A DNA stretch of 64,000 bases from Rosa chinensis (Eukaryota > Streptophyta > Magnoliopsida > Rosales > Rosaceae): contig NC_037092.1 of assembly GCF_002994745.2 (NCBI RefSeq), forward strand, positions 23,895,001-23,959,000, in the 5' to 3' direction. The notes beneath the pieces are model-generated. The model saw nothing but the letters and a program-made list of their open reading frames with translations, searched no databases and was not told the origin of the DNA. The translations under genes were made by a program, and so were the position numbers. Positions 28,016 through 62,300 of the stretch are shown one piece after another (the first letter of the stretch is position 1; every line of letters starts with the position of its first letter).

Positions 28016-28523
28016 ATCGAAGTGTACGTGCAAATTTGTAATAATGGACGATGAAAGTGAAAATATGTAATGAGCATTTCAACTCCAAACATTTGTATTT
28101 ATAAGGCAGTAGACCTCTCATTTAGGGGTCGTCAACGGCCCGGCCCGGCCCATTCATAGCGGGCTTGGGCCGGGCCTTGCTATATTTTTAAATAATTGCG
28201 GGCCGGGCCGGGCCGGGCTTTATTAAAAATCAAAGGATCCAAGTCCGTCCATATAAAGCGGGCCTTGCGGGCTTTTTCGGGCCGGGCCGGGCTTGGCCTT
28301 GCGGGCTTTTTTGGGCCGGGCCTTGCGGGATTTATTTATAAATAAATATTTAAAGACACAAGTATTTTTTTTTTAATCAAGCTTTGGAAATTCAATGGAT
28401 AATGATCAAATACAACCAAAAATAACATATCTATATAACTATATTGTACCAAAAAAAATCTATATTTATATATAGATACTAATTTATTGATAAATAAATT
28501 TTTAAAGACACTAATTTTTTATA

Positions 28524-30140
28524 GGGAAAAAAATACAAACAGTACTCCAACTAAGGCCCGTTCTAAATTTCTATACCCAAGTTTTTGAAACTATCACAAT
28601 GGTACCCAAAATTGTCAGCCCGACCCAACATTCGTACCTGCCGTCCATGACGGCGTTAAACTATTATACCAGGTGACATATTTTGAGGGGTAATTCCGTC
28701 CCAACGTTTTTTTTTTCACTTAATTAATAACCACTCTGGTTACTTTCTCCTTTCCCACTCTTGCGGCATAACTGCGATGATCATCTCGAACAATTGATCT
28801 TCAGAAATGCAAGACTCATTGGAATCAAACCCAGACTTCAAACTCAGGCAGCGAGTCCACTCCACGGGTGACCCCCGTCGAATCAAGACAGTGGAGGTAC
28901 TTGGGACACGTTGAAGGCTATTCGGCCACATGGGTCGGAGTCGATTAGGACAACAGAGATGGCAAGCATGATGGGTCGATCAATGGGGTCAAGTATTTCT
29001 AGGAAAGCTTTAAAAGATTTGGCTTTTTTGTTCGAGCCCACAATAAGCTCTGGAATTTCATTGCTGCAAGCTCTTGAGCTTGTGTAAAATGTTCAACTTG
29101 TTGGTAAAGACTGGAGACAAAATTCAAGACAAGCCAAGTTGCTTCGAAGAGAGAGAGGTGGTGTTGTGAAGTTGGTGCTGTTGTGCCAAATTTGAAGATC
29201 ATGATGAGATTCCTCTACCCAAGAAAGCTATGGCTTCAGAGCCACCAATTTTTGAAGAAGAAGATCATGATTGGATTAAGCCTCCCAATGAAAGGTAGTT
29301 ACTTAGACTCTTTATGATGGATTCTCTGTACTTTGAGAAACGACACAATTGAGAGGTTGGAGGAGGTGGATGCAATATAATAGAACAAGAATGCAAACGG
29401 AGAAACGACAATTGAGGTCGCAATCGGCACCTCCTGGTGTTCGGAATTAAGGTCACAATCGGCACCTCCCAAGCCTTACAACCCTGATCTGATGGTGTTT
29501 CTGCTTGGTGGCTTGGGTGGTGGCGTCTTGTCTCCGGTTGTGGCTTGGGTGGTTATGGCTCAAAGAGCCTTGGAATTTGTTTTCTGTATGGGTTTCTTTT
29601 TGTTGTTTGGGTTTGGCTTTTGGCCATTCTTTTTCTGTGTTTAGATTAAGGTTTGTTTGCTTCTGCATTTCCTACCCAGTTGCTGGGTTTTGCTGCCAAA
29701 ACCCGATATTAAGCCCAGAAGAAAAAAGCACCCAACTGCTTTCTTCTTTTCCGATCACTACGTTGCTATCTCTGGTCTCCTCCGGTCAAAATTTTTACAC
29801 CGTTTTCTTCCTCTCTTAAAGAGAAACACACTCATATAACTTTCTTTATCTAACACCCACGGTATACAACAAATCGAAGAGAGAGAATCAGAGACCAGAG
29901 AGGCGACAAGAGGAGGGAGATGATCTGCGACTTTGCTTTGGTGGAGGAGACAAATAAGAAATGACCCAAATATCCCTCTAAAATTAGCACGTGGCATGAT
30001 AGTTAACACCGTCATGGACGGCAGGTACGAATGTTGGGTCGGGCTGACAATTTTGGATACCATTGTGATAGTTTCAAAAACTTGGGTATAGAAATTTAGA
30101 ACGGGCCTTAGTTGGAGCACTGTTTGTATTTTTTTCCCTT
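28524..30140. mobile_element. Non-autonomous Mutator-like element, 1617 bp
   Basis: Terminal inverted repeats of about 150 bp (28524-28672 and 29992-30140) begin gggaaaaaaatacaaacagt and share tacccaagtttttgaaacta. The 9-bp duplication TTTTTTATA flanks both ends exactly (28515-28523, 30141-30149), the length expected for MULEs. The interior (about 28690-29960) has coding-like stretches on both strands, for example 28740-28931 and 29505-29819, but I recognise none. Pack-MULE capture of host DNA is possible. The element sits inside the hAT element, so it is the younger insertion. Confidence 0.88.
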
Positions 30141-30152
30141 TTTTATAAATCT

Positions 30153-32404
30153 ATATTTATATATCTTACACTCCAAAGAGCAACCCCTATCAATTCAAAG
30201 AAAATGAAAAAACCGACTGTTGGATGAGTTTATTACAATAAATTATGAGTGTGGTAAAAAATTTAGCCAATTTCACCATATTTTCGAATCCTATCGGATT
30301 AGTCAACCGTAGACACTTATATGTTTTATTGGTTGACCGATGCCGTGACAACCTCGAAACTTGCTTATTTTTTCACATCACATTTGTATATATTCCATCA
30401 ATGGATGTGCTTGGACATAAGATAAAAAAAAATTAATTTTAATTACAAACACATTGGTCTATACCAATTTTCCTCCTAAAGTTGTATGACATATTCATTG
30501 TATTTAAATTTTTTAGGTTCATTCTAAAGCAAACATGAAGTGGAAAATGAATTCAGAGAAACCAACCGCTCGATTGAGAGATTGTAATGTTTTATGGTGG
30601 TTGTAGAAAATCCAGCCAATTTGGTTATCGTTTCGAATTCGATCAACTAGGTCAAACTTAGTTACTCTTATAAACCTATATTTATATATCATATACTCCA
30701 AAGAGCAACCCATATCAATTCAAAGAAAATGGAAAAACCGACCGTTGGATGAGTTTATTACAATAAATTATGAGTGTGGTAAAAATTTAGCCAATTTCAC
30801 CATATTTTCGAATCCGATCGGATTAGTCAACCGTAGACACTTATATGTTTTATTGGTTGACCGATGCCGTGACAACCTCGAAACGTGCTTATTTTTTCAC
30901 ATCACATTTGTATATATTCCATCAATGGATGTGCTTGGACATAAGATAAAAAAAATTAATTTTAATTACAAACACATTGGTCTATACCAATTTTCCTCCT
31001 AAAGTTGTATGACATATTCATTGTATTTAAATTTTTTAGGTTCATTTTAAAGCAAACATGAAGTGGAAAATGAATTCAGAGAAACCAACCGCTCGATTGA
31101 GAGATTGTAATGTTTTATGGTGGTTGTAGAAAATCCAGCCAATTTGGTTATCGTTTCGAATTCGATCAACTAGGTCAAACTTAGTTACTCTTATAAACCT
31201 ATATTTATATATCATATACTCCAAAGAGCAACCCATATCAATTCAAAGAAAATGGAAAAACCGACCGTTGGATGAGTTTATTACAATAAATTATGAGTGT
31301 GGTAAAAAATTTAGCCAATTTCACCATATTTTCGAATCCGATCGGATTAGTCAACCGTAGACACTTATATGTTTTATTGGTTGACCGATGCCGTGACAAC
31401 CTCGAAACGTGCTTATTTTTTCACATCACATTTGTATATATTCCATCAATGGATGTGCTTGGACATAAGATAAAAAAAATTAATTTTAATTACAAACACA
31501 TTGGTCTATACCAATTTTCCTCCTAAAGTTGTATGACATATTCATTGTATTTAAATTTTTTAGGTTCATTTTAAAGCAAACATGAAGTGGAAAATGAATT
31601 CAGAGAAACCAACCGCTCGATTGAGAGATTGTAATGTTTTATGGTGGTTGTAGAAAATCCAGCCAATTTGGTTATCGTTTCGAATTCGATCAACTAGGTC
31701 AAACTTAGTTACTCTTATAAACCTATATTTATATATCATATACTCCAAAGAGCAACCCATATCAATTCAAAGAAAATGGAAAAACCGACCGTTGGATGAG
31801 TTTATTACAATAAATTATGAGTGTGGTAAAAAATTTAGCCAATTTCACCATATTTTCGAATCCGATCGGATTAGTCAACCGTAGACACTTATATGTTTTA
31901 TTGGTTGACCGATGCCGTGACAACCTCGAAACGTGCTTATTTTTTCACATCACGTTTGTATATATTCCATCAATGGATGTGCGTGGACATAAGATAAAAA
32001 AAATTAATTTTAATTACAAACACATTGGTCTATACCAATTTTCCTCCTAAAGTTGTATGACATATTCATTGTATTTAAATTGTTTAGGTTCATTCTAAAG
32101 CAATCATGAAGTGGAAAATGAATTCAGAGAAACCAACCGCTCGATTGAGAGATTGTAATGTTTTATGGTGGTTGTAGAAAATCCAGCCAATTTGGTTATC
32201 GTTTCGAATTCGATCAACTAGGTCAAACTTAGTTACTCTTATAAACCTATATTTATATATCATATACTCCAAAGAGCAACCCATATCAATTCAAAGAAAA
32301 TGGAAAAACCGACCGTTGGATGAGTTTATTACAATAAATTATAAGTGTGGTACAAAATTTAGCCAATTTCACCATATTTTCGAATCCGATCGAATTGGTC
32401 AACC
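30153..32404. repeat. 524-bp tandem array, 4.3 near-identical copies
   Basis: ctatatttatatatc...ctccaaagagcaaccc recurs at 30153, 30676, 31199, 31723 and 32247, giving periods of 523-524 bp. Copies 2 to 4 differ by only a few bases and copy 5 stops at about 32404. Each unit includes ccaatttcaccatattttcg and ggttgaccgatgccgtgaca. Frames of 64-85 codons persist on both strands because the copies are nearly identical; I do not call them genes. The array lies within the hAT element. Confidence 0.95.
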
Positions 32405-32466
32405 GATATGTAGAATATATATATATTCACATATTCTATATAGAATAATAGAATTATAAGAACTTC

Positions 32467-32502
<36 letters not shown>

Positions 32503-32524
32503 AATATATTATATATATATATAA

Positions 32525-32572
<48 letters not shown>

Positions 32573-32620
32573 ACACACACACACATATATATATATATAT
32601 ATCTATATATATATATATAA

Positions 32621-32654
<34 letters not shown>

Positions 32655-32817
32655 CTATATATATATATAAACACACACACACACATATATATATCTATAT
32701 ATATAATTATATATATATATATATAAACACACACACACATATAATATATATCTATATATATATTTATTATGCGGTAATGCATATATATCTTTTCTATATA
32801 TATATATAACACACACG

Positions 32818-32872
<55 letters not shown>

Positions 32873-32944
32873 ACACACACAAATATATATCTATGTGTGA
32901 GTGTGTGTGTGTATATATATTTATAAACACACACACACATATCT

Positions 32945-32970
<26 letters not shown>
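32405..32970. repeat. Compound (CA)n/(TA)n microsatellite
   Basis: Alternating cacacaca and tatatata blocks fill about 560 bp and join the tandem array to the GC-rich right end of the hAT element. Open frames here (Tyr/Ile or Cys/Val runs) are artefacts of the dinucleotides. Confidence 0.95.
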
Positions 32971-32978
<8 letters not shown>

Positions 32979-33270
32979 TTACGGGCTTTTACGGGCCGGG
33001 CCTAGCTGGGCTTTGGCGGGCCGGGCCTACGGGCCGGGCCGGGTTTTTGCGGGCTTTAGGCGGGCCGGCCCTCGGCCCACCTAGGCGGGCTTTTGCGGGT
33101 TTTTTGACGGGCCGGGCCGGGCTAAAAGCCCTTAGGGCCGGCGGGCCTCCATCGGCCCACTTGATCCGCGGGCTTTTTGATGAGGCCTACTCTCATTAGT
33201 CATTTGCTTTGATTATTGTACACTCGAACATTATTACACTTGAAGCTCAATTGGGCCCAGCGACTCTTAC

Positions 33271-33379
33271 CTATTAGCGGCTTGCTCTTCACAAAATTCT
33301 TATGTGCATGGTCAAATGGCTTGTAATGGTTCAAGTAGCGCAATGCTTCGAAGTCATAAAGATAATCTTTGCCACCCAT
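33271..33379 (-). other. Coding-like exon fragment, unrecognised
   Basis: Minus-strand reading from an ATG at 33379 gives MGGKDYLYDFEALRYLNHYK, then continues PFDHAHKNFVKSKPLI to a clean donor (gtaaga) at 33270. Amino-acid composition and the splice site look genuine, but I recognise no family and see no partner exon. It lies between the hAT element and the POLD3 remnant, where the missing 5' exons of POLD3 would be expected, but on the opposite strand. Confidence 0.25.
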
Positions 33380-33693
33380 TGTCTTATGATCTTATGGAAA
33401 ATCACAAATTTGCGTGGCACAATTTGAGTATGCCGGAGCATCTTCGATGGTTGAACATTTAGGTTTATAGGTGCTTTGGTTTATATATTCTACAAAACTT
33501 TAAAGATTTTATATTTTGCTGGATGACTCAGTCCCTCTGTTATGCTAATTTGTAGTAATATATACTCTTGCTTAAATTTAGTATAGTATATAAAAATTAT
33601 GCACCTATGCAATTATACATGTGATAACTATTCGCTATGCTTCTCCAGGTTCTGCGGCATTCTCAATTCCTTTGTTTTGCGTAATGTAGAGGG

Positions 33694-33951
33694 TGCTAAA
33701 AATCAAGGTTATGATGATGAAAGCTTGAAGGTAAAGCAACAATGGTGAACGAAACCCTAAGCTAGAGGAAGAAGACGAAGAACAGAGAGATAAAAGAGAG
33801 GCTACTGGTATTGTGGTATTTTTCCTCTGTAATTGTACAATTGCTAACTTGTATCAAATGAAGAAACCAAGGCTTTTATACTAAACAGCTACTGCAACAG
33901 ATTTCACCAAGTCTCCGGATGCTTGACACGTAAGTGGTCTTCATCTTAACA
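33694..33951 (-). repeat. 3' LTR of the POLD3-inserted element
   Basis: Begins tgctaaaaatcaaggttatg and ends cttaaca on the + strand. It reads the same as the other LTR base for base. Confidence 0.93.
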
Positions 33952-33960
33952 TCCCCCCTC
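33952..33960 (-). promoter_or_regulatory. Polypurine tract
   Basis: GAGGGGGGA on the minus strand, directly next to the 3' LTR; it primes plus-strand synthesis in LTR retroelements. Confidence 0.8.
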
Positions 33961-34080
33961 AAACTAGTGCTTGGGGAACCAAGAACTAGGTTGCAGCAGA
34001 GAGTCCTTTGGTAAAAATGCAGAAATCGATCAGGCAAGAAACCAGTTGCAGTCAATAGAAGCTAGTACTTGAAACTTGTC

Positions 34081-36114
34081 TCAATCAGGAGGAATCTCAA
34101 TCTCAGCTCTTTTGTCATCCAGCTCTTCCCACTCTTTCTCAAAAGACTCCTTTTGCTGCACCAAATTTTCCTGCACTTCAAGGTCAACACTAGTAGATGC
34201 ACATGATATATGTACTGTATATTGTACTGAAGCATTATCCTTCTCAACAACAGAAACGTCTTTGGATGGAAAATGTCCCAAGTTCCCCAATGGGAGGCCT
34301 TCAATAGCACCAACAAACGAAGTCTGACTAGATACCTCAGACAAAGGAATTTTAGAGTTGAAAGGATCCACATAATATGGATCACAATCATCCCCAACAG
34401 TGACATTGTGCTTCGTAGAGGAAAGTTTAAGATTACTACAGTTCATGCTTTCATTTTCTACACACACATTTGTGTCATCATTTGACTTAGAGGTGTACTC
34501 CACGCTGTCTCTGTATCCAATCTTAGTCACATCAGAGCTAACCTTTTCAGAATGGGAAACAAGAGGCTGTGCAACACCAAATACTACTTCTCTAGCACAA
34601 ATTTGAGCCTCTGCACTAGCTCCAGTATGTGGAGGAATCAAAATATTATTTTCAGCTATACAATTTGACTTTGGCTTCACAGATGCACAACCCCACAAAT
34701 TTTCCAACGAACCTCCAAAAGCAAAAGAGCTTTTATCATGCTGGACCTTCTTTTTGTTAGCAGGAAGAGGAGCAACTTTTTCTTTTTGCTTTGGTGCAGT
34801 ATTCTCATAGCTAGCAACCATTGCAATATATCCATTCCCTTGAGTAGAATTTTCTTGTGGTTTTCTATATTGATGGCTTGTGACCGAATGGCCCAGCTTC
34901 TTGCAAATTTGACACTCCATGTATGAGCTTGCTGCTAGATTCTGAGGTAGTGAATTTCTATGATGGCACTTGGAAGCAAAATGCCCAGGTTTATCACAGA
35001 TTTGGCACACAATATACCTATTAAAGACTTGATTCCGATTGTTGTTGTAGCATGATCTAGGTCTGTGATTGAAGCTTTTGTCATTGTTGCCATTGTTCAC
35101 AGTATAGGGAGCATTTGGTGTAGGTATTAGACCATATCCAGTAGCAAAACTTGTACCATTGGAGTATGCAGGTTGGTAGCTTGTATGTGTAGCTTTTGAG
35201 AAATCAGTGCTATTGGTCATAGTATTTGAAGGAGGCACAAATCCAAATTGAGTAGTTGCAGCAATAGGAGTGGCAGTGAAGTGATTCATGGTTGTCACAT
35301 TAGGCAATACAACAGATGAATGAGACATACCATTCATACTAGGCAACATAATAGATGGCACAGGACAACCATTCACATAAGGGTACAAGCTTTGATTCTG
35401 AGCAACTGTATTCATTCCAAACTGAAAATTCTGTGGTGTGTGATTAACCAAACCATTATGTGCAATCATAGCAGTCAAAGATGACAGTGATAATGCCTTG
35501 TTCTCTGATTCAATTTCAGCTTCAGCAGACAGTAATAAAGACCTCACTTCTTCCATATCTATATGACCCTTTCCCCTTATAATTTGCCTAGTATGTCCAT
35601 ACTCACAAGGGAGACCAGCAAGAACAAGAATTTTAACCTCTTGATCTAACATTTGAACTCCTGCAACTGCTAACTGATTTCTTATTGATTTGAAGCGTAA
35701 CAAATACTTTTCTATAGAATCAGATCCCTTTTGAATGTTGTGTAAGTTGGACTTCAATTTCATAATATGAAAATCAGAAATTGGTGCGTATCTTTGCCTA
35801 AGAGTAGTCCATACCTCCATTGAAGTCTGGCATCCAATCACTAGAGTAAGTGCATCAACAGAAAGTGTAGTTGTGATCATAGAAATCACAGAGCTGTCTT
35901 GCTCCAACCAACGCTCATAAAGCCCAGAATTATCTGAAGATAAAGTGCCAGCGTCTTCAATGCGAAACTGAGAAGGGCAAGGATAAGAACCATCAATGAA
36001 TTTGAGCAAACCATGGCCTCGAAGATGATGTTGCATCAGATATAACCAAGTTGGGTAATTGGTATCATCGAGACAAACAGAGACTGCATTACAGTATTGT
36101 GATGAAGACGCCAT
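34081..36114 (-). CDS. Copia-type Gag-like protein fused to captured host segments
   Basis: About 677 residues from the ATG at 36114. The N-terminal 250 residues match copia-type gag (UBN2/retrotran_gag): NYPTWLYLMQHHLRGHGLL, EVWTTLRQRYAP, LAVAGVQMLDQEV, ILVLAGLPCEYGHTR. A CX2CX4HX4C knuckle, CQICDKPGHFASKC, is followed by a degenerate one, CQICKKLGHSVTSH. At about 34585-34785 comes KEKVAPLPANKKKVQ through GASAEAQICARE, which is POLD3 with the 175-bp host intron 37085-37259 removed. The C-terminal tail VQQKESFEKEWEELDDKRAE resembles the coiled coil of plant CRWN/NMCP nuclear-lamina proteins, a probable second capture. The region between the two is acidic and unrecognised. The open frame extends further upstream without an ATG. 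Confidence 0.85.
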   Translation of the reverse strand: MASSSQYCNAVSVCLDDTNYPTWLYLMQHHLRGHGLLKFIDGSYPCPSQFRIEDAGTLSSDNSGLYERWLEQDSSVISMITTTLSVDALTLVIGCQTSMEVWTTLRQRYAPISDFHIMKLKSNLHNIQKGSDSIEKYLLRFKSIRNQLAVAGVQMLDQEVKILVLAGLPCEYGHTRQIIRGKGHIDMEEVRSLLLSAEAEIESENKALSLSSLTAMIAHNGLVNHTPQNFQFGMNTVAQNQSLYPYVNGCPVPSIMLPSMNGMSHSSVVLPNVTTMNHFTATPIAATTQFGFVPPSNTMTNSTDFSKATHTSYQPAYSNGTSFATGYGLIPTPNAPYTVNNGNNDKSFNHRPRSCYNNNRNQVFNRYIVCQICDKPGHFASKCHHRNSLPQNLAASSYMECQICKKLGHSVTSHQYRKPQENSTQGNGYIAMVASYENTAPKQKEKVAPLPANKKKVQHDKSSFAFGGSLENLWGCASVKPKSNCIAENNILIPPHTGASAEAQICAREVVFGVAQPLVSHSEKVSSDVTKIGYRDSVEYTSKSNDDTNVCVENESMNCSNLKLSSTKHNVTVGDDCDPYYVDPFNSKIPLSEVSSQTSFVGAIEGLPLGNLGHFPSKDVSVVEKDNASVQYTVHISCASTSVDLEVQENLVQQKESFEKEWEELDDKRAEIEIPPD

Positions 36115-36420
36115 TGTAGATCTTGATGCAAATAGGTACAAGATTGAATCTTGAGACAGTATCGACTTGAATCTTCGAACGAGCTTCGTGAAAAGTAAGG
36201 AACTGAGAAATTGAGAATGAACAACTACAAATCTACTAGAACCTTGAGATTTCTTCACTGGTAATTATACAAATCTTGCTTTCTTTGTGATTTTGCTTCG
36301 CAATTGTACAGGAATTTGGTATTTGATTTGGTAATTGTACAAATCTGAATCAATCTAGGGTTTTAATGGATGAAATTGCAGCGGAAGAGGATAGAGTGAG
36401 CAATGGTCAGGCCGCCATGA

Positions 36421-36432
36421 GCTCTGATACCA
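36421..36432 (-). promoter_or_regulatory. Primer-binding site (initiator Met-tRNA)
   Basis: TGGTATCAGAGC on the minus strand, abutting the 5' LTR at 36433 with no spacer. This is the usual primer site of plant Ty1/copia elements. Confidence 0.9.
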
Positions 36433-36690
36433 TGCTAAAAATCAAGGTTATGATGATGAAAGCTTGAAGGTAAAGCAACAATGGTGAACGAAACCCTAAG
36501 CTAGAGGAAGAAGACGAAGAACAGAGAGATAAAAGAGAGGCTACTGGTATTGTGGTATTTTTCCTCTGTAATTGTACAATTGCTAACTTGTATCAAATGA
36601 AGAAACCAAGGCTTTTATACTAAACAGCTACTGCAACAGATTTCACCAAGTCTCCGGATGCTTGACACGTAAGTGGTCTTCATCTTAACA
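36433..36690 (-). repeat. 5' LTR of the POLD3-inserted element
   Basis: 258 bp, TG...CA. It is followed on the right by the target duplication GAGGG and then by the remainder of the POLD3 exon. Confidence 0.93.
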
Positions 36691-37150
36691 GAGGGAACAC
36701 CATTGAGCACTGCAGGTCCACAACTGAAGACCAAATTAGCTTCAGAGCCATCAAAAATTAATTTAGCTCATCAAGATAGTGTGATTTTAAAACAGCAACA
36801 GAATAAAGGAGAACAATCTAGTCCGAAAGTTGGTTTGCCGGCTCCCAATGTGGTAAACGATGTCAAAAGTGAAAGCAATGGCATAGGAGTTACTCATCAG
36901 CCTAACAAACATCCTGCAGACAAAGAGAAAGTTGCTCCTCTTCCTGCTAACAAAAAGAAGGTCCAGAGTGATAAAAGCTCTTCTGCTTCTGGAGGTTCAT
37001 TGGCAAATTTGTGGGGTCGTGCATCTGTGAAATCCAAGTCAAATTCTACAGCCGAAAATAGTAATTTGATTCCTACGCATACTGGTAGGTTTCACTAGTT
37101 TACCAAGTTTTAATATTTCATTCTTTTATCTTCTTTAACATTGATAGAAG

Positions 37151-37187
<37 letters not shown>
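37151..37187. repeat. (CT)n microsatellite in a POLD3 intron
   Basis: About 18 CT units between exon ends 37084 and 37260. Confidence 0.9.
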
Positions 37188-37189
<2 letters not shown>

Positions 37190-39354
37190 TATTCTTTTGT
37201 AAGATGCTCACGATTTGTAGCACTAGCTAAGTTACTTCTTTATATCCTTCCTTCTTCAGGAGCAAGTGCAGAGGCTCAAATTTGTGCTAGAGAAGCAGAA
37301 CCTGGTGTCATCAGCGACGATGATGATCAAGATGTTAATTTTAAGAGAGCTTCCGGTTCTGAAGTCACTAGGAAACGGAGGGTTGTCTTTGATTTCTCCG
37401 ATGAAGACGAATGTGAAGATGCAGTCAATTTAGCATCACCAGAGTATCCAAAAGGAAAATCATGTCAAGAGCTCAAAGAAAGTAGCAAAACTTTGGTTCC
37501 ACTTAAAACCAATTTGAACTTTGACGAGCAGGTAGAAGATAAACCAGAGGTCAAGGAAGAGATATCAGTTGACGGAAAATCTGACCCACCTTGCAGAGAA
37601 GATTCTACTGTTGTCAGCAAGGAAAGTAATTCTGGGATTATCCTGACAGAGAAAACAGACAGATCTGTTCCTGAAAAAGATGTGAACAAAATGGATAAGC
37701 TGGCCACTGCTGCTAAAACACAGATAGATGCTGGGATTATCCTAACTGAGAAAAAACGTAACTCTGTGCCTGAAAAAGATGTGAACAAAATGGATAAACT
37801 GACCAACGGTGCATCAAGATCTCCGCAAAGAAGAAAATTTTTGAAGACGCGGATTGATGAACGTGGAAGAGAAGGTATTCCCTGCTTTCTATGCCTCAGT
37901 TTTCATAGAGTCCTGCTTGTAGAATGTCAGTTTGCATCTTAGCATATATTCTCTGCTGCAAATGGCTTGCGGTTATTCAACAAAATATAATAAATTAAGA
38001 TGGACTCATTAGTAACTGCTTACAAGCAATCTATTCTATAAACATTCCCACTCATATCTCTGATACGGCTGGTTCTAGTTTCTTTTCTTACTGCAACTGT
38101 TTAATGTCAATATATCATATGTGATTTATATTTCTGAAATTTATCCTGAATAAATATGTTGTAGCAAGGTGAGCTAATAAATTTTTTTTTTTTTTGTTGT
38201 AGAAGAAATCACATGTCCATCTAAATTTTATTTTTCATTTGTTGTTCCAACGTAATTTATACAGTAACTGAGGTAATATGGGAGGGCAAGGAGACAGAAG
38301 CAAAGAAAGCTGACAGCAGTGCAACCATGAAAGCTGACAGCAGTACAACAAAGAAAGCTGATAATACAGTTACCAGTGTTACGAACAGGTTAATTTATAT
38401 CTTGCTATTATTTTATCCATTCAGTTCTTGATCTAAGATGATTGTAGCAAAAGATCATTTGTGTTTTTTCGTTTTTACTTTCTATTCCTCTTAATGTCAT
38501 ACAAATATGAGTCCATAGGATTTAAGTGAAACATTAAGCCAAAAGATGTCACATCATATTTAACTATACCAATTCTGCATTTATGGGTTGAAACAAATGT
38601 AGTCAAGATCGTTGGCACAATTGAGAGAGGCCTTAAACTGATAGAATATTGAAATTTTATGTTACCCACGACAGACTTAGACAAACATGTAGTTCAGAAG
38701 CTAATCAATATGAGTCTAGCCTTTGTGTACTTCTAGTAGTGTAAATAGTAACCAAGGCATTTGTTTGGTTTATTTGATGTGTTCGTTATTTTTTTTATTC
38801 CCAAAAGCTTCATTTGATTAAATTTTTCTAGCTGAAGTTGGAGCTTTTCCCTGGTGACTGAACTCTAAATGTTGGTTTTATTAATCCAGGCCTGCCGCAG
38901 CTCAGAAGTCAGTGGCGAACACTGGGCCGAAAAATCAAACTGCCAAAGCAGGAGGCAAGAAAGCAGTAAACAAGGATCCTAAGCAAGGAAATATTCTTTC
39001 ATTCTTCAAGAAGGTCTAAGGCGTTTTTCAAATATCCTTGCAGGGGAACTCTCTGATATAATGCTTCTTACAAAATCAAGGTTCCTTCGGGCAATGAAGG
39101 TTTTTGAGTTGCTTAAATCTTTGCTTTGCCTTGTGTCTGGAGGGGAGTCGCAGAATTCGGGTTTAGGGTACATTGCTCTTACATCTTGTTATTTTCAGAT
39201 GATGGAGACTGGAGAGTGTTTGCTTTTCTTCTCTGCTGTTAGTTTAAGCCTTTAAGGCTCCAAATGTAAATGGATATAACGGTTCCGTCGTGTCTGGTTG
39301 CTCCTATACTGTTTCATTCTTAAATTTGTGCTGTCGATTATTTAGCGTACTTTT

Positions 39355-40000: not shown

Positions 40001-41780
40001 ATGGATGATACTGAAATCAGAAACAGCGTGGATGATGTTGAAATGAATGAGTCTGATAATGAATGTGTTGGCCAAGAAAGTCGTATTGGAAGTTCTTATA
40101 TGCCAACTTTTCAATACTCTCAGCAGAAAATGAGACAAGGTTTGACCAAGTACATTTCTTCAAGTGGGCAAGTTTATTCTTCTGCTCAACATGCTAGATT
40201 TGAAAAGTTTATTCAAGAATATGTTCAGTCTGAGTATTCTAGTCTTTGCCTGCACACTATCAAAAGTGATTCTCTGAACTACTTCAATGATATGAAAAGA
40301 GCACTGGTATCCGAGCTTTCTGGTTTCAATGGTACGTTTTCTTTCAGTACTAATTTCTGGAGTAGTGCCGATGAACAACTTGTGTTTCTGCACATTATAT
40401 TGACTCTGCTTGGATGTTGCAAAGGAGAATCATTGCTTTTCGTATGCTCGAATATCCTCATAGTGATACTGTTATATTTCAGAGCATAATGGATATATTT
40501 AGGGAATATATGATTGATGATAAGGTCTTCAACATTACTTTTGATGATGTTACTGGGAGTGATGCCATCATTGACATGTTTAAAAACACTTTGCAACCTC
40601 CTTGTGGAGGTCAATTTTCTTATATGAGATGTTTATGCCATATGGTCAATTCAATGGTGCAAGAAGGCTTGAAATTGATGGAAGCTCATATAGAGAAAAT
40701 TAGGGGTGCTATTCTTTACATTGCTTCCTCTTCTGCTAGGCAACAAGAATTTTCTGCTTTATGTGAGTCTCGAGGTCTGAAATATAGAGAGCTGAAACCT
40801 GATTTCAAGGATCATTGGAACTCTACTTTTCTCATGTTAGCATCTTGTGTCAACTACAATGCTGCAATCAGTGAACTTTACAATGGCAAACATGATGGTA
40901 GCAATCTTTTATGTGAAAGTGATTGGGAAATTAGTTTTCTTTTTATGAACTTTCTAAAAGTATTTTGCTCCGTGGCACTCTCAAATTCGAAGGTTTATTT
41001 GCCCACATCTTCTGGTGGTCTTTTTATTTTGAGATATATTAGCAAGTGTTTTATTGACAAACACAGAGGTCATTCAATTCCAGAATTTACAGCAGTTTAT
41101 GAAAAAATGGAGTCGAAATTCAAAAGTTATTGCGAGTGCATGTTACCCAGTTACTGTTTAGCTGCAGCAATGGACCCTAGATTCAACGGACAGGGTCTAG
41201 ATTTCTTAGTTAAAGACATTTCTGAATACTTGAGCATGCCATTGTTGAATATGGATACAAAAGCTATTGAATCTAGGTTACATGATCTCTACAAAGTTAT
41301 GAATCCAAATTTGCAGAAAAAGAAAAACCCACCTCTGATCGAATCCCAAAACGAAAGAGATTTGATGACGGTGATGAAAGTGCTGTCGAAAAGTTTCTAG
41401 AATGGAGGAGACAGAAGGAAATAAAGACCTATGGGCCAACTGAGCTTCATAAATACTTGGGAGTTAACTATACAGCCTATATGACCAATGAAGAGTTTCA
41501 GAATTTTGATGTTTTAGCTTGGTGGAAAGACAATGCACTGTCATTTCCTGTGCTTTCAAAAATGGCATGTGAGCTACTAACGGTTTCGGTGTCTGCAATA
41601 GCACCGGAGTTTGTGTTCAGTAGTACTTCAGGTAACCAGGTCCTGGACTATAAGAGGAGTATGGAACCTTCAGAAATGTTGGACTGCCTTTTCTGCATGA
41701 AGGATTGGGAAGATGCACGACTTCGAGCTCAGAACTGGACGGATGATGATATGGTCGAGTACTATGCAGATTCAGAGTAG
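40001..41780 (+). pseudogene. hAT (RICESLEEPER-like) transposase relic
   Basis: Three frames together give a near-complete transposase body. 40001 onward reads SQQKMRQGLTKYISSSGQVY and NDMKRALVSELSGFNGTFSF. After a frame change near 40390, HYIDSAWMLQRRIIAF, FNITFDDVTGSDAIIDMF and RQQEFSALCESRGLKYREL follow. After a second change near 41335, ESAVEKFLEWRRQKEIKTYG leads into the C-terminal dimerisation (hATC) block FPVLSKMACELLTVSVSAIA and MLDCLFCMKDWEDARLR. The zinc-finger BED domain expected at the N terminus is absent, and the hATC motif is degenerate (APEFVFSS where SExxFS is usual). The two frameshifts make it inactive. No terminal repeats could be paired. A CT-rich leader precedes the ATG. 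Confidence 0.85.
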
Positions 41781-53386: not shown

Positions 53387-56300
53387 CTAACTCTGTTCTA
53401 TCCTTGAATTCTCAAATCTGTCATTAGGAATAAGCAGGATCTTTCCAAAATGCTTGCCACTCTCCATGGGCCGGTGAGCCTCTGCTGCTTTAGCGAATGG
53501 AAAACGATGATGCACAACAGGTTTTACCTTACCAACTTCTATTAACGGCCACACATGCTTCTGTACCTCCTCGACAACTTTTGCTCTCTCTTCTAGCTTT
53601 CTAAACCGAAAGCCAGCCACTGCATGCATAGCCACCATATGAGATAAATTTTAACTAATACTGAGAGAAATCAGAAAGTGTTTTTCTGATTTGGGGGGAA
53701 TTTTAGCACTACCCTTTTGACAAGTAAATGTAATGAATGTTTTTTTTTTTTTTTGGAAAAAGAATAGTAGGTTCAATTTCGGTTTTGGTATTATTAATGA
53801 AGAAGGTAACTCAACAAATAATTGCAAAACTAGATGTCCGATTTCATGATAAACTAGCAGAGTTCACTAAATTTACAGGAAAAAAAAAAAACTCTAACCA
53901 AGTATATTCTAGTCCAGTACCTCCTATGTTCAAGTTCGCCTGAAGCTCAGAATTCACTTTTTTTGGCTGTGGAGTGCTAGCACGAGTATCTTTTGGTAGC
54001 ATCCAACAACCATTGATCTTAATAACTGTCCCACCTTGCTTAACACAGGCATGGTTCCATGGCATATATTCAATCGGGAGGCTACTCAAGACGACATCAA
54101 CACCTGCCATTAGGCATACATCAATATGATTTCTCATCCACAACAGTAAATAAAACCAACAATAGAAGGCATAGTATCGTTCTTATTGAGGTTATTACTG
54201 AGATGTTGATAAAAGAAAACAAACCTTTGTTGGCATCTGTTTCTCTATTTACCCTTTCAATAAAGTCATCTTCCTTGTCCTTGTAATTGAAACTGATGCA
54301 TGCATCAGCTCCAAGTGTCTTACAGAACTCTAACTTGTCACTACCTGATTGTCATGATTCATATCCTTGAGTATGTGTATGAAAAATAATTTTGAGCTAG
54401 CTGATTCGTAAATGAAAAACTTAGAATTACCTGCTGTGACAATCACCTTTACACCCCGGGCTTTTGCTAACTGTACTGCAAATGAACCAATTCCCCCGGA
54501 TCCCCCATGAACCTGAAATTTGACAGTAGTTCAGGGATATATGAAAGCTTATCATAAATAAGAAGAGTCGTACTATGGAGAAGATTTACCATCGTAAACA
54601 GTCAGAGAGATATATTTATTTAATCCCTTTTTGGGTGAATGATGCTTTAATTTGTCATAACTTAATTAGCAAAAGTATAAATATTCCAAATCACTTCAGA
54701 TTGGTGGACTTGGGGGAAGTTACCAATATAGTTTCACCGGCAATTAGCCGACTGTTCCTACCAGCGGGTAACCAATGTTCAAAACATAGCTTGTTTTCCA
54801 TAAAAAGTGCGGCCCAAACACTACAAGCCACTTGAGGGAAACTAGCAGCCTCCTCCACAGAAATACTTTTGCGGATAGGAAATACCAATCCTTCTTGAAC
54901 AGCTACCATCTCAGCGTATCCTCCTCCACTCAGAACAGCACACACCTAGATAACAAAAATTGGTACAGTTAAAGTATTTGACATGCATTACAAATGCTCC
55001 AATTCTTGGCAATCCTTGGTGGGAAGAGAGCTCAAAGAGAGCTGGCACTAACACCCTACAGAATGCTCACCACACCCATAAATCAATTTTCATTTTTGTC
55101 ATGGGGCTCATTCATGAAGTTCTATAGCATTAGCATATAAAATTATAATGATATATATAAATATATGAGACCATCAAACAAGAAGTTCGATTCTAATAAA
55201 TATGAGCTCAGCCAAGTGCAGCCACAAGAAGCAAGAATTTTTTTTTTTTTTGGATGAAATGAGTGCTAGAATAGGAACAATAACCTCCCTAACACTCCAA
55301 TTATTAATCCAAAATGAGTTGAATGACAAAGGAGGGGGGCCTAACCAAAACATCTGGATGCAACAAGCATAAACTAACAAGTTAACGAAATCTAAACTGC
55401 TGAAGACCTAAAATATCACTCTAAATTCCCGTGATTTTCCGAACAAAAGAAATATATATATTTTTTAGGAGAGAAGTAGAAAGCTAAAAGCAGGTCAGGT
55501 CTATAAAGTACGGTCAGAAGTTTCAAGTCATATGAGAACATAGTCACTCCTTGCTCGAAGCTCCAATTGGTGTTATAGTGTTAAACAGCACCTTGTGTCA
55601 ATGACAGCACCAGATTCCGATACACCTGACTAAATGTCCTGTGCTGCTATGAATTATGATGCTGGGCTTAAGTGGGTTGGTATGATCATCTCATCAGGTT
55701 CTGACGCAGTCGGAATGATAAACTAGGTTTACCAGCAATAAACCTAAGCAAACGATTCTGGAGTCCACCAGAGATAAAAGAGAATAATCTCAATATATTG
55801 ATAAAAGATGATAAGATGCCTTCTGCAGCCGCTTGCGGCTGCATAAATAAGAGAAAAGTACCCTAGGGTGACTAACAACGAAACCCTAAGGCCCATGGAT
55901 AAAAACGAAAACAATCCAAAAATAACTAAGAAAACCAAAAACGGGTAAAATAGAAAAATGCCGTTTTGAGGCCCTAAACGATCCCGAAAGCCCGAAAAAG
56001 GTCACACGTCGTGGCATAGCGACGAGTTTGCTTTCTGGCGCGATTCCCTTTCCGGAAAGCTAAAGTGCGTCCCGATCGGACTCCGGAGGCCCATTTCACG
56101 TCTACTAGTCCCTTTTCGGTTTCCACCCTTAGCACGATCCAATTGTTCTTGAAATTGGACCGCTATCTGTTCTACATCAGTCTCCTCCACCTCCGAAGAA
56201 CTCGACCCCGAGTTCTCTTCAGGATAAAGAACCTCATCTTCATGAAACTCATGCAGATCAGCAACATTGAAAGTGTGAGAAATGCCCATTGAATCTGGAA

Positions 56301-59300
56301 GTGCAACAACATAAGCATTATCATTGATCTTCTTCACCACCTTAAAAGGACCATATTTTCTGGGCTTCAACTTGTTATAGGTACCAACAGGGAATCTCTC
56401 CTTCCTCAGGAACACCATCACGTCATCACCTTCCTGGAATACTTTAACTCGCCGATGTTTATCAGCTGCAGTTTTATTCTTAGCATTAGTTGCTTCCAGC
56501 TTAGCCTTAACTTCATCTCGAACAGCTTGTACATCTCTAGCCATACTATCAGCAGCAACACTAACTCCAGGAACCTTAGGAAGCTTCACCAGATCAACCA
56601 CATGTTGAGGAACAGTAGTATAAACTAAGGAGAATGGTGACTTCCCTGTGGCGCTATGCACAGCACTGTTATAAGCAAACTCCACCTGGGGCAAAGCATA
56701 ATCCCACTGTTTGGGTCGATCTCCACAAACGCTCCGGACCATGTTACCCAAAGTTCTGTTAGTAACCTCTGTCTGGCCATCCGTTTGAGGATGGGCTGTG
56801 CTACTACGGTTCAAAGATGTTCCAAACATCCTCCACAAAGTAATCCAGAAATGGCTAAGGAACTTGGTGTCTCTGTCAGATGTAATGGACTTGGGTACTC
56901 CATGCAAACGAACCACTTCCCTGAAGAATAATTTAGCTATATTAGAAGCATCAGCAGTCTTTTTACATGCGATGAAATGCACCATCTTAGAGAACCTATC
57001 AACTACCACAAACACTGAATCCACTCCCCTTTGGGTACGGGGTAAGCCCAACACAAAATCCATAGCAAGGTCCTGCCAAATGTCATCAGGAACAGGTAAA
57101 GGTAGATAAAGACCTGTATTTTGGGACTGACCCTTAGATACTTGGCAGGTGTAGCACTTTCTCACAATAGTTCCTGCATCCTTCTTCAACTGTGGCCAGA
57201 AATACCGCTCCTCAAGACTAGCAATAGTCTTGTCTCTGCCCAAGTGCCCGCTCAATCCTCCTCCATGCAGATCTCGGATCAGTTTTTCCCTCAATGAAGA
57301 ACTAGGGATACAAAGTCTGTTGCCCTTGAATAAATATCCTTCATTCTCATAAAAATCTGCGACTGCATTGTTATTGCTGCACTTGGCCCAAATCTCCTTG
57401 AAATCAACATCTTCTTCATACAACTCCTTCAAGAGGTCAAACCCCACAATCTCCTGAGCTAAAGTGACCAGTAAGGACGCCCTCCTACTCAAAGCATCTG
57501 CGACCCGGTTAAGAGTACCAGATTTATGTTGAATCACAAAAGGAAACTTCTGCAGAAAACTCACCCACCTTGCATGCATTTTATTCACAGTTTTCTGGCT
57601 ATTGAGGTACTTCAAGGCTTGGTGATCGGTGAACAGTACGAACTCCCTCTGAATCAAGTAGTGCTCCCATTGCCTCAATGCCCGGAACACTGCATAAAAT
57701 TCTTGGTCATAAGTACTCCACTTCTGACGAGCTTCACTCAACTTTTCACTAAAGAATGCTACGGGTTTCTTCTCTTGTGACAATACAGCACCCACTCCCA
57801 CGCCACTAGCATCACATTCTACCTCGAATACCTTGTCAAAATTAGGAAGAGCAAGAACTGGTGCAGTACAAAGCTTCTCCTTGATTAAGGCAAAGCTCTT
57901 CTCTTGTTCCTCTCCCCATTGGAATTTGCCTTTCTTCAAACATTCAGTAATAGGGGCAGTAATGGTACTGAAATTCTTCACAAATCTCCTGTAGAAAGTA
58001 GCTAAACCATGAAAGCTCCGCACTTCAGAAACTGTTTTCGGAGCTGGCCATTCTCTTATTGCTCGTACCTTCTCTTCATCAACCTGAATGCCTTCTTCTC
58101 CAACCACAAATCCCAGAAATAATAACTTGTTGGTGCAGAATGTACATTTTTTTAAGTTGATGTACAGTTTATTCTCCTGTAAAGCTTCCAAAACCTGCTT
58201 CAAATGCACCAGATGTTCTTCTTTGGTCCTGCTATATATCAGTATATCATCAAAATACACTACTACAAAGGAACCCATAAAGGGGCGAAGAACCTGGTTC
58301 ATAAGCCTCATAAAAGTGCTGGGTGCATTAGACAACCCGAATGGCATGACCATCCACTCGTACAAGCCATCCTTGCTCTTAAAAGCTGTCTTCCATTCAT
58401 CTCCTGGCTTGATTCGAATTTGGTGATATCCACTTCGAAGGTCTATCTTGGTAAACACTTTGGAACCTTCTAGCTCGTCAAGCATGTCTTCCAAACGAGG
58501 AATAGGAAACCTGTACTTCACAGTTATCTTATTAATGGCCCTGCTATCAACACACATCCGCCATTGATTGCCCTTCTTAGGAACAAGGAGGACGGGAACT
58601 GCACAAGGACTCATACTTTCTCGGATGAACCCCTTTTTTAACAAGTCTTCGATCTGCTCCCTCAAAATCTCATTCTCCTTGGGACTCATTCGGTAATGTG
58701 GCAGATTTGGCAGGCTAGCTCCAGGAACCAAATCGATCTGATGTTGGATGTCTCTCATAGGTGGTAGTTCGTTGGGCAACTCATCTGAAATCAACTCTTC
58801 AAAATCTCCCAACAACTTCTGCACTTCTTTAGGGATCAACACATCTTCCTTTTCTGTAGCCAACAATCCCTTTATCACTACTGGGCAGAAAACTTCAGTT
58901 TCTCTAAAAGCCTCCTCCATCTCAAACTCACTACTAGATAAGGTCAGGAAACTCTCCCCTTTCTTCCCACCAGATTTTTCAAATTGACTCACGGGAGCCA
59001 TAGCAATTTTATGACTATCCCACATAAACATCATCACGTTATCTCTACCTTTGTAAATCACATCCACATCATATTGCCAAGGTCGTCCAAATAAAATATG
59101 ACAAGCATCCATATCAATAATATCACACATAACTTCATCTTTATAATGCTTACCAATGGAGACCGGTACTTTGCAAGAATCAATAACTCGAACTTGTGGA
59201 CCTTTCTTGACCCAACCAAGGGAATAAGGTGCTTCATGAGGCTGCGTAGGTAACTGCAAGTATTCCACCAGTTTCTTGGCTACAAAGTTTTCGCAGCTCC

Positions 59301-62300
59301 CATTATCCACAATCAAATTGCACACCTTGTTATTGACGGAACAAAATGATCTAAAAATATTGCGCCGTTGTCCATCTTCTTTGGGACATAATAAGACCCG
59401 CTGCAACACAATATTAACCTTTTCAGGAGACTCCTCCTCCGCGAACTCAGCCCCATCATAATCGTCACCTCTTCCTCCTTCTTCTTCATCTTCATCATAT
59501 TCACCTATAAGAGCAGTTTGTCTCCTCTCTGGACACACATTAGACCTATGTCCAGGCTTGTTGCATCGATAACAGACATCTCCCGTAGGTCTAGCATAAG
59601 GGTTATTAAATCTCTGATTCGGGGCTCTATTTTGAGCACCACTAGAACTACCAACACCTTTAAAAGGAGGATTGGAAGCCCTAAAAGCACCTTCTGTTTT
59701 CTGCAGTGTGGTTTTACCCCTGTCAGTTGAAGAATTTACTAGATCTGTGCTCCTTTGGTAGTTATATCTTTGGAAAGAAGAAGCTCGTGAAGGCTTCTCT
59801 AACAACTCTGCCTTCAATGCTAGGTTTGAAGCTTCTGCCATAGTATGAACAGTTTGCAACCCGATTTTCTCTTGAATGGAAGGCTTCAGCCCACTGACAA
59901 AGCGAGCCACCTTCTGACCTTCAGTTTCTCCTAATTCATTACGCTCCGAGTAACGCAAGAACTCAGCGGTGTATTCAGCCACTGTCCTAGTTCCCTGGAC
60001 ACATTCGATATACAATCTGTACAAAATCTGTTCATAATCGTCCGGTAAGAACCTCTCCATCATCAGCTGCTTCATTCTTCGCCATGTTTTAACACCCTGC
60101 TTCCTTTGTTTCTTGCGGGTGTTCTGCAATTTATCCCACCAAACTGCAGCAGTACTCTTCAATCTCCATGCAACATGCTTAACCTGCTTGTGTTCAGGAA
60201 CTTCCATGATCTCAAAGAACCTATCCACTTGAAGCTGCCAATCTAGATAATCTTCTACACCCAAGTTGCCCGAAAAGAAAGGAATTTCGGCCTTGACTTT
60301 GTAATCTTGGTCAGCTTGTCCTTGTGGTTCATATTGCACCGTTGTTGTTGTTGTTGTTGTTTCTCTCTCCTAACAACCCACGAATTTCTCCAATCTGCTG
60401 ATCCATCCGATTGTTCATGGTGTTGATGGCAGCGGTAAACGCTGCCGTGAGAGCTTCGATATCCGATTTTGTAACTTCACCCATTGCTACCAAGGTAAAT
60501 AGGAGAGACAGGAAAGACCTGCTTTGATACCACCTGACGCAGTCGGAATGATAAACTAGGTTTACCAGCAATAAACCTAAGCAAACGATTCTGGAGTCCA
60601 CCAGAGATAAAAGAGAATAATCTCAATATATTGATAAAAGATGATAAGATGCCTTCTGCAGCCGCTTGCGGCTGCATAAATAAGAGAAAAGTACCCTAGG
60701 GCGACTAACAACGAAACCCTAAGGCCCATGGATAAAAACGAAAACAATCCAAAAATAACTAAGAAAACCAAAAACGGGTAAAATAGAAAAATGCCTTTTT
60801 GAGGCCCTAAACGATCCCGAAAGCCCGAAAAAGGTCACACGTCGTGGCGTAGCGACGAGTTTGCTTTCTGGCGCGATTCCCTTTCCGGAAAGCTAAAGTG
60901 CGTCCCGATCGGACTCCGGAGGCCCATTTCACGTCTACTAGTCCCTTTTCGGTTTCCACCCTTAGCACGATCCAATTGTTCTTGAAATTGGACCGCTATC
61001 TGTTCTACATCAGGTTCTCTCACCAATAGTCTCCACATGAACACTCTCCACCCTTGAAATGGTGAAACCGGCTATTATCTCTGACAGTTATCTCTCTTCC
61101 GACAATCTTGGATATAAGTTTTGTTGCTGTATGACAATCCATACATACCCGAAGGTTTTTTGTTACTCGGTCCCAGCAGGAGTGGTAATGATGCCAAATG
61201 CTATGGCAAGCCTCTCACTGTGGTGACACAACAGGTACTTCTTTTGCTCCTCTTCAACATCTTGGAGCACCTCATTTGTGTTTGGCACATACCCTTCTCG
61301 CTCCTTCTGCTCCAAGAGAACTTCCAGAGCCTTGATTATCTCAATATAATATGGGTGGGGTTCATCTCCCGCTACAAAAGCATGAACATTGTTTTTAACT
61401 TCAATCCAGCTGCAGGCTGGCTTCATGCCCTTATCTCCTATCGAGATTCTCATTTCTGCTACTTCTCTTCATTTCTTAGCAGCAGAATATATGTTTGACA
61501 AAAGCACAAAAGCCATGAAAGCAACATAAGTAGGCTTTAGTGCCTCTCCTTTCGTCAGCTCAAATAAGGAAATGGTTTCACGGGCATGACCCTGCAATGC
61601 ATATCCCACAGTCATGGCTGTCCATGACACCATATCATGTTGCTCCAATTTGTCAAAAATCTACCTTGCCATCGTAATGTTACCACATTTGGCATACATG
61701 TTCACTAGCTTGCTACATAGATATTATCCTCAAATCCGCGCCAAATTATGTATCCATGGAGCTGCTTCCCCAGATGTAGAGTGGTCAAGTGGGCAAAAGC
61801 TGGAATGATACTTGAAAAGGAGACATCTGTTGGCTTAGTTTTAGCCATCAAACATACCATTCTGCACATACCCTCCAATAATCAAGTTCCATGAAATGGA
61901 ATCACGCCGACGTAGCAGGTTGAACACTTTCAGAGAGTCGTCCGTATGGGTAGAGTTTGCATACATGTCAATCAAGCTACTGCCAATCAGCACATCTGCA
62001 TCAAATCCATGTCTTACGGCATACACATGAATCTCCTTTCCCTTTAATAACATCTACATATTCTGCAAAAACCAGAAGAACACTAGACAAAGTAAAAGAA
62101 TCAGGCTTCAAGTTGGCATTCCCCATCTCTCACCCTTGCTAAAGCCTGTTCATACATCCCCGCAATCACCGTATTCCAGGACACAATATCTCGTTCTGGC
62201 ATCATGTCGAAGACCTTTCTTACACTATCCATTTTAATAACTCTTTCGCCTTTCTTTTGCTTATAAACTCGATCAATGTTCTCATTAAATTGATCATCTA

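What the first reader, a model, noticed from the sequence alone, without database searches (positions are those of the whole stretch)
33652..37295. LTR retroelement carrying a spliced POLD3 fragment is inserted in POLD3 itself
The element (33694-36690) splits a POLD3 coding exon with GAGGG target duplications. Its own ORF contains about 200 bp of POLD3 (near 34585-34785) spanning an exon junction, with the 175-bp intron 37085-37259 cleanly absent. The capture therefore came through mRNA. The captured piece is antisense to the host gene and about 90% alike by eye, and the LTRs look identical. Host-mRNA capture by plant LTR elements is known (for example Bs1 in maize), but re-insertion into the donor gene is unusual. 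Antisense transcripts could form double-stranded RNA with POLD3 mRNA.
Basis: partly seen in the sequence, partly recalled or inferred. Interest (0 to 1): 0.92.

Follow-up and report, generated by a model that had tools for sequence, protein, structure and literature searches.

The report
Gag-only retroelement inside truncated POLD3 copy
A small mobile element in a rose genome, which long ago picked up pieces of two host genes (one of them clearly through RNA), recently landed in a broken spare copy of one of those genes; it is real and curious, and most likely a coincidence.

Summary
A 2,997-bp LTR element (33694-36690, minus strand; identical 258-bp LTRs, GAGGG duplication, primer site, polypurine tract) splits a POLD3-type exon. 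The interpretation needs correcting. The genome is very probably Rosa chinensis. The window's POLD3 is not "POLD3 itself" but one of five tandem copies found, four of them 5'-truncated; the one with all exons lies 170 kb away. The exon is uninterrupted in three of the other four copies; the fourth has lost it. Three element copies on two chromosomes share the POLD3 piece, so capture long preceded this insertion. The element's own transcript would carry the piece in sense, so it cannot directly give antisense RNA to POLD3 mRNA. Best reading: a TR-GAG-type element with Bs1-like double transduction landed by chance in a dispensable duplicate of its donor. With only six close-LTR sites found in 515 Mb, the meeting was improbable beforehand, so homology-aided return stays open at low probability.

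The parts
33694..36690 (-). gag-only LTR retrotransposon
   Evidence: Identical 258-bp LTRs, TG..CA ends, 5-bp duplication, PBS, PPT
36433..36690 (-). 5' LTR
   Evidence: 258/258 identical to the 3' LTR
33694..33951 (-). 3' LTR
36421..36432 (-). primer binding site TGGTATCAGAGC next to the 5' LTR
   Evidence: read; match to initiator-tRNA-Met-type sites is recalled
33952..33960 (-). polypurine tract before the 3' LTR
   Evidence: read
33689..33693 (+). target-site duplication GAGGG, left
   Evidence: a single GAGGG in the uninterrupted exon of unit 3
36691..36695 (+). target-site duplication GAGGG, right
34081..36114 (-). 677-aa ORF: copia-type gag with two CCHC knuckles, then two host-gene pieces in frame; no pol domain found
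   Evidence: Pfam: only Retrotran_gag_2 above its cut-off, E 6.1e-20; CCHC knuckles read by eye
34574..34785 (-). captured POLD3 piece, spliced, sense to the element and in POLD3's own frame
34161..34558 (-). second captured piece, from an EEP-domain (CCR4-like) gene at C6:60058597-60059826, in that gene's own frame
   Evidence: 85% (337 of 398 columns)
34081..34160 (-). ORF tail, about 26 aa of unknown origin, possibly a third capture
   Evidence: Shared with P0121; origin untested
33458..39019 (+). 5'-truncated tandem copy of POLD3 (residues 139-570), split by the element
   Evidence: breakpoint about 33458 from comparison with unit 4
37085..37259 (+). 175-bp POLD3 intron that is absent from the captured piece

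Best explanation
It is a non-autonomous, gag-only copia-type LTR retrotransposon (TR-GAG type). An ancestor picked up a spliced POLD3 mRNA piece and a piece of an EEP-nuclease (CCR4-like) gene, most likely when reverse transcriptase switched templates between element RNA and co-packaged host mRNAs (inferred). The chimera then moved a few times, with enzymes from an autonomous partner (inferred). Recently one copy was integrated in the ordinary way, with a 5-bp duplication (shown), in antisense orientation into unit 1, a 5'-truncated tandem duplicate of POLD3. A POLD3 with all exons remains in unit 4. Donor and target meeting is best explained by chance, helped by the tandem array (larger target, little cost) and possibly by a preference of copia-type elements for gene regions (recalled, not tested).
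For: Structure. Spliced capture. Same piece with shared derived differences in three copies at C5:23.93, C5:24.42 and C2:13.87 Mb, so capture precedes the insertion. Captured versus host dS 0.185, against 0 of 258 LTR differences. Exon uninterrupted in units 3, 4 and 5; unit 2 has lost the site. Five POLD3 loci, all exons found only in unit 4. Second donor on C6. The integration has the normal signature, so no special mechanism is needed.
Against: Only six insertion sites with close LTRs (at least 94% identical) were found in 515 Mb (the tool calls such counts lower bounds). With about 27 kb of POLD3 target the prior expectation is about 3e-4 hits (my arithmetic; one search used three copies and gave 1.9e-4). 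A second capture-bearing copy lies 257 kb from the array. Template switching itself is not shown, the second capture gives no evidence on RNA or DNA origin, and no autonomous partner was identified.
Confidence: 0.8

Rival explanations
1. Homology-aided return: the captured POLD3 stretch in the element's RNA or cDNA paired with the transcribed POLD3 array and tethered the integration complex nearby, after which integrase inserted it 226 bp from the matching stretch.
For: One of six close-LTR sites is in the POLD3 array and another is 257 kb from it. The insertion lies 226 bp from the matching stretch 36922-37085. Runs of 39 and 31 identical bases exist.
Against: A normal 5-bp duplication and no recombination scar. 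The other four sites (C2, C3, C6 and C5:29.43 Mb) are not near POLD3. One event, noticed after the fact. No mechanism of this kind is known to me for LTR elements.
Confidence: 0.08
2. Chimeric gene in the making: the gag-POLD3-EEP ORF is kept for a protein function, as proposed for maize Bs1.
For: The window ORF is open over 677 aa and both pieces are in their native frames. P0121, an annotated 444-aa Rosa chinensis protein, is of the same type and contains both pieces.
Against: Read from the same start codon, the ORF stops after 185 residues in the C2 copy and after 75 in the C5:24.42 copy; in the latter the EEP piece is also broken by a TAG or frame change. The POLD3 piece carries 12 nonsynonymous and 7 synonymous changes against host POLD3. 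A young copy is expected to be open without selection.
Confidence: 0.05
3. Silencing source: small RNAs from the element, or a hairpin transcript across unit 1, lower POLD3 expression.
For: The 164-nt inverted arms are 89% complementary and 30 21-mers of the element are identical to POLD3 mRNA. A review reports that captured-gene elements in maize act as siRNA sources against donors (PMC13317346, section 8 read).
Against: LTR-driven RNA would carry the piece in sense. A hairpin needs plus-strand transcription of a copy that lacks its 5' exons and lies behind a 5-kb hAT insertion. No RNA data here.
Confidence: 0.04
4. Assembly artefact joining unrelated sequence.
For: A tandem array is a hard region to assemble.
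Against: Perfect LTR pair, exact target duplication, and three paralogous copies of the exon without the element.
Confidence: 0.02

Closest known systems
TR-GAG (terminal-repeat retrotransposons with GAG domain)
   Same: Two LTRs and a single gag ORF without pol. The class is described so in PMC6022998, and PMC8704663 reports transposition of one in an Arabidopsis ddm1 mutant (passages read).
   Different: The gag ORF carries two in-frame host-gene pieces.
Bs1 of maize
   Same: Retroelement with pieces of several host genes in its coding region; three genes according to PMC13317346 (section 4 read).
   Different: Different donors (POLD3 and an EEP-nuclease gene); one copy sits in a tandem duplicate of a donor.
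LTR-captured genes of rice and sorghum (PMC3726574)
   Same: Host genes carried by LTR elements, some with matching small RNAs (passages read).
   Different: No insertion into a copy of the donor gene was mentioned in the passages seen.

Membership tests
TR-GAG | two LTRs with PBS and PPT | tested here: met
TR-GAG | gag as the only retroelement domain, no pol | tested here: met
   Pfam: only Retrotran_gag_2 passes its cut-off in the ORF, the weaker hits are mostly other gag families; the other ORFs in the element are 114 aa or shorter
TR-GAG | integrase-type target-site duplication | tested here: met
   GAGGG; ATATG in the C5:24.42 copy
TR-GAG | mobilised by an autonomous partner | not tested
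   whole-genome searches with the ORF DNA did not complete
Retroelement with transduced host genes (Bs1-like) | host coding sequence inside the LTRs | tested here: met
   POLD3 and EEP-gene pieces
Retroelement with transduced host genes (Bs1-like) | capture through RNA (intron absent) | tested here: met
   Met for POLD3: 175-bp intron absent. The matched EEP donor stretch lies in one open frame, so that piece is uninformative
Retroelement with transduced host genes (Bs1-like) | chimeric ORF is expressed | not testable with these tools
   no RNA or protein data

The most novel reading that the evidence does not exclude
Captured host sequence can steer an LTR element back to the neighbourhood of its donor gene, by pairing of element RNA or cDNA with the transcribed donor, so that gene capture biases later integration.
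Probability: 0.07. Interest if true: 0.85.

Novelty: new member of a known kind. Interest (0 to 1): 0.48.

Why it matters
As an ordinary case it is a compact, datable example of mRNA capture by a gag-only element, with both donor genes and uninterrupted versions of the target exon in one genome. If self-locus insertion proved more frequent than chance, captured sequence would be a targeting device for LTR elements. That can be tested directly by a survey.

Tried and rejected
Rejected: one particular POLD3 paralogue as donor (the five loci form one young array: in the POLD3 part, mismatches are 10 of 1418 between units 1 and 3, 17 of 1174 between 1 and 2, and 11 of 834 between 2 and 3, while the captured piece is about 11% away). 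Rejected: DNA-level capture of the POLD3 piece (intron absent). Rejected: the chromosome-5 copy at 24.42 Mb as part of the same duplicated unit (no flank similarity to the window). Too little for a claim: the closeness of that copy to the array.

Led nowhere: the 63-aa frame at 33200-33391 has no Pfam match and only four weak PDB matches, E 0.1 to 0.6. The ORF tail looked to me like a CRWN/NMCP-type coiled-coil piece (recall only); Pfam gave nothing and the genome search for it did not complete. Literature searches listed no title or abstract on re-insertion into the donor; this covers only the held open-access library and those terms. Pfam gave no family for the first exon of the upstream gene that I recall as gamma-glutamyl hydrolase.

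Full report
WHAT IS THERE. The element at 33694-36690 has 258-bp LTRs identical at all positions, TG..CA ends, GAGGG duplications, TGGTATCAGAGC directly after the 5' LTR, and a G-rich tract before the 3' LTR. On its sense strand (window minus) it has one long ORF: 677 aa from the ATG at 36114. Its first part is copia-type gag (Retrotran_gag_2, E 6.1e-20, the only Pfam family above its cut-off), with two CCHC knuckles by eye. No pol domain was found. It therefore fits the TR-GAG class as described in PMC6022998 and PMC8704663 (passages read).

FIRST CAPTURED PIECE. Element bases 1906-2117 (window 34785-34574) match POLD3 exons on both sides of the intron 37085-37259: 164 bp at 89.0% and 50 bp at 90.0%, with the 175-bp intron absent. 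The piece is in POLD3's own frame and in sense in the element's transcript.

SECOND CAPTURED PIECE. A search with residues 508-676 of the ORF returned four proteins: P0121, which is another copy of the element's protein, and three others without gag, of which P0140 carries an endonuclease/exonuclease/phosphatase domain. The gene is at C6:60058597-60059826 in the same genome. Element bases 2133-2530 (window 34558-34161) match it at 337 of 398 columns, in the gene's own frame. The name CCR4-like is recalled. The last 26 or so residues of the ORF are unexplained.

WHERE IT IS. The window is C5:23895001-23959000 of a 515-Mb, 53-contig genome. Contig C2 has the same length, 88556329, as the contig of P0121, annotated Rosa chinensis, so the species is very probably Rosa chinensis. 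A 570-aa rose POLD3 (P0001, Rosa sericea) finds only residues 139-570 in the window. Across the genome (27 matches; all 34 candidates scored) there are five POLD3 loci, all on C5 between 23.93 and 24.16 Mb: unit 1 (window, residues 139-570), unit 2 (about 285-570), unit 3 (about 138-570), unit 4 (residues 1-570, all exons found) and unit 5 (37-570; its second exon is cut). The other three places in that search are the captured pieces. Units 1-3 are tandem segmental duplicates that also carry the upstream gene and downstream sequence. Mismatches in the POLD3 part are 10 of 1418 (units 1 and 3), 17 of 1174 (1 and 2) and 11 of 834 (2 and 3). Window 33458-33693 matches unit 4 at 99.6%; upstream of 33458 no match to unit 4 was found, so the truncation point is about 33458. 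The element thus sits in a truncated duplicate; the copy with all exons is 170 kb away.

EMPTY SITES. Unit 3 aligned to the joined window flanks is uninterrupted, with a single GAGGG. In units 4 and 5 the bases matching 33693 and 36696 are adjacent. Unit 2 has lost this exon. So the exon is without the element in three of the four other units and missing in the fourth, and the insertion into unit 1 came after the duplications, barring conversion. A hAT-type element at 28123-33189 (8-bp duplication CTCTCATT) is likewise absent from units 2 and 3.

OTHER COPIES. The LTR search scored 40 of 55 candidates. Eight matches of at least 94% identity define six sites; the other 32 are partial and at most 89%. 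Three sites hold internal sequence with the POLD3 piece: the window, C5:24417103-24420687 (L009; LTR pair differs at 2 of 258; duplication ATATG) and C2 near 13.87 Mb (L010; 5' LTR missing). The other three hold LTR sequence only within the 9-kb stretches fetched (L011, L012, L013). The three captured pieces share their main differences from POLD3, so they descend from one capture.

AGE AND ORDER. Captured against host: dS 0.185, dN 0.087 over 63 codons. The window LTRs differ at 0 of 258. With recalled rates of 7e-9 and 1.3e-8 per site per year, the insertion is younger than about 0.83 or 0.45 million years (95% limits), and the capture would be about 13 or 7 million years old if both branches were neutral; the host branch is constrained, so this is rough. 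In a protein alignment the piece is closest by eye to the Rosa and Fragaria sequences; no tree was made.

MECHANISM. Shown: retroelement structure, loss of the intron, shared capture, normal integration signature. Inferred: template switching onto host mRNA inside virus-like particles, and mobilisation by a partner's enzymes. A review describes both transduction and abnormal template switching in plants, and three host segments in Bs1 (PMC13317346, sections 4 and 8 read).

CHANCE OR STEERING. Six sites and about 27 kb of POLD3 target in 515 Mb give about 3e-4 expected hits (my arithmetic; one search gives 1.9e-4 for three copies). This is small, but the case was picked after the fact from a scan, many plant genes are carried by such elements, and insertion into a spare truncated copy has little cost. 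The element at 24.42 Mb lies 257 kb from unit 5, which is suggestive only. The normal target duplication and four sites away from POLD3 argue against a special pathway. I keep steering at 0.07-0.08.

RNA EFFECTS. A hairpin would need plus-strand transcription through unit 1, whose 5' exons are missing. Small RNAs made from the element could still match POLD3 mRNA in two identical runs of 39 and 31 bases, i.e. 30 21-mers. No RNA data were available.

CODING FATE. The window ORF is open. Read from the same start codon, the C2 copy stops after 185 residues and the C5:24.42 copy after 75. Frames of 502 aa (C2) and 464 aa (C5:24.42) are open over the POLD3 piece; in the C5:24.42 copy the EEP piece is broken. 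Nothing here shows selection for a chimeric protein.

VERDICT. Observation confirmed; interpretation partly supported. A new member of a known kind (gag-only element with transduced host genes) in an unusual position that chance can explain.

Noticed in passing
20490-48000 and C5:23974517-24050429: The window region is one unit of a tandem segmental duplication (three units compared as DNA, two more seen through POLD3), mostly 96-99% identical, carrying an upstream gene (recalled as gamma-glutamyl hydrolase, unconfirmed), truncated POLD3 and downstream sequence.
   Followed up: partly
28123-33189: hAT-type element with 8-bp duplication CTCTCATT, absent from units 2 and 3; by eye it holds a nested terminal-inverted-repeat element and tandem repeats of about 550 bp.
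   Followed up: partly
40375-41777: hAT transposase-like ORFs (Dimer_Tnp_hAT E 3.1e-18 at 41286-41777) just downstream of POLD3.
   Followed up: partly
56002-60369: Gypsy-type element with one open 1455-aa gag-pol frame; stretches on both sides of it (55702-55941, 60535-60774) match 239 bp of an insert in the L009 element copy at 82%.
   Followed up: partly
L035:248-510: In unit 5 the non-POLD3 stretch matching window 33190-33460 lies directly before the POLD3 part, suggesting that units 1-3 arose from a unit-5-like truncation with later deletions.
   Followed up: partly
34081-34160: The ORF tail after the second captured piece is shared with P0121 but has no assigned source; possibly a third captured gene.
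   Followed up: no
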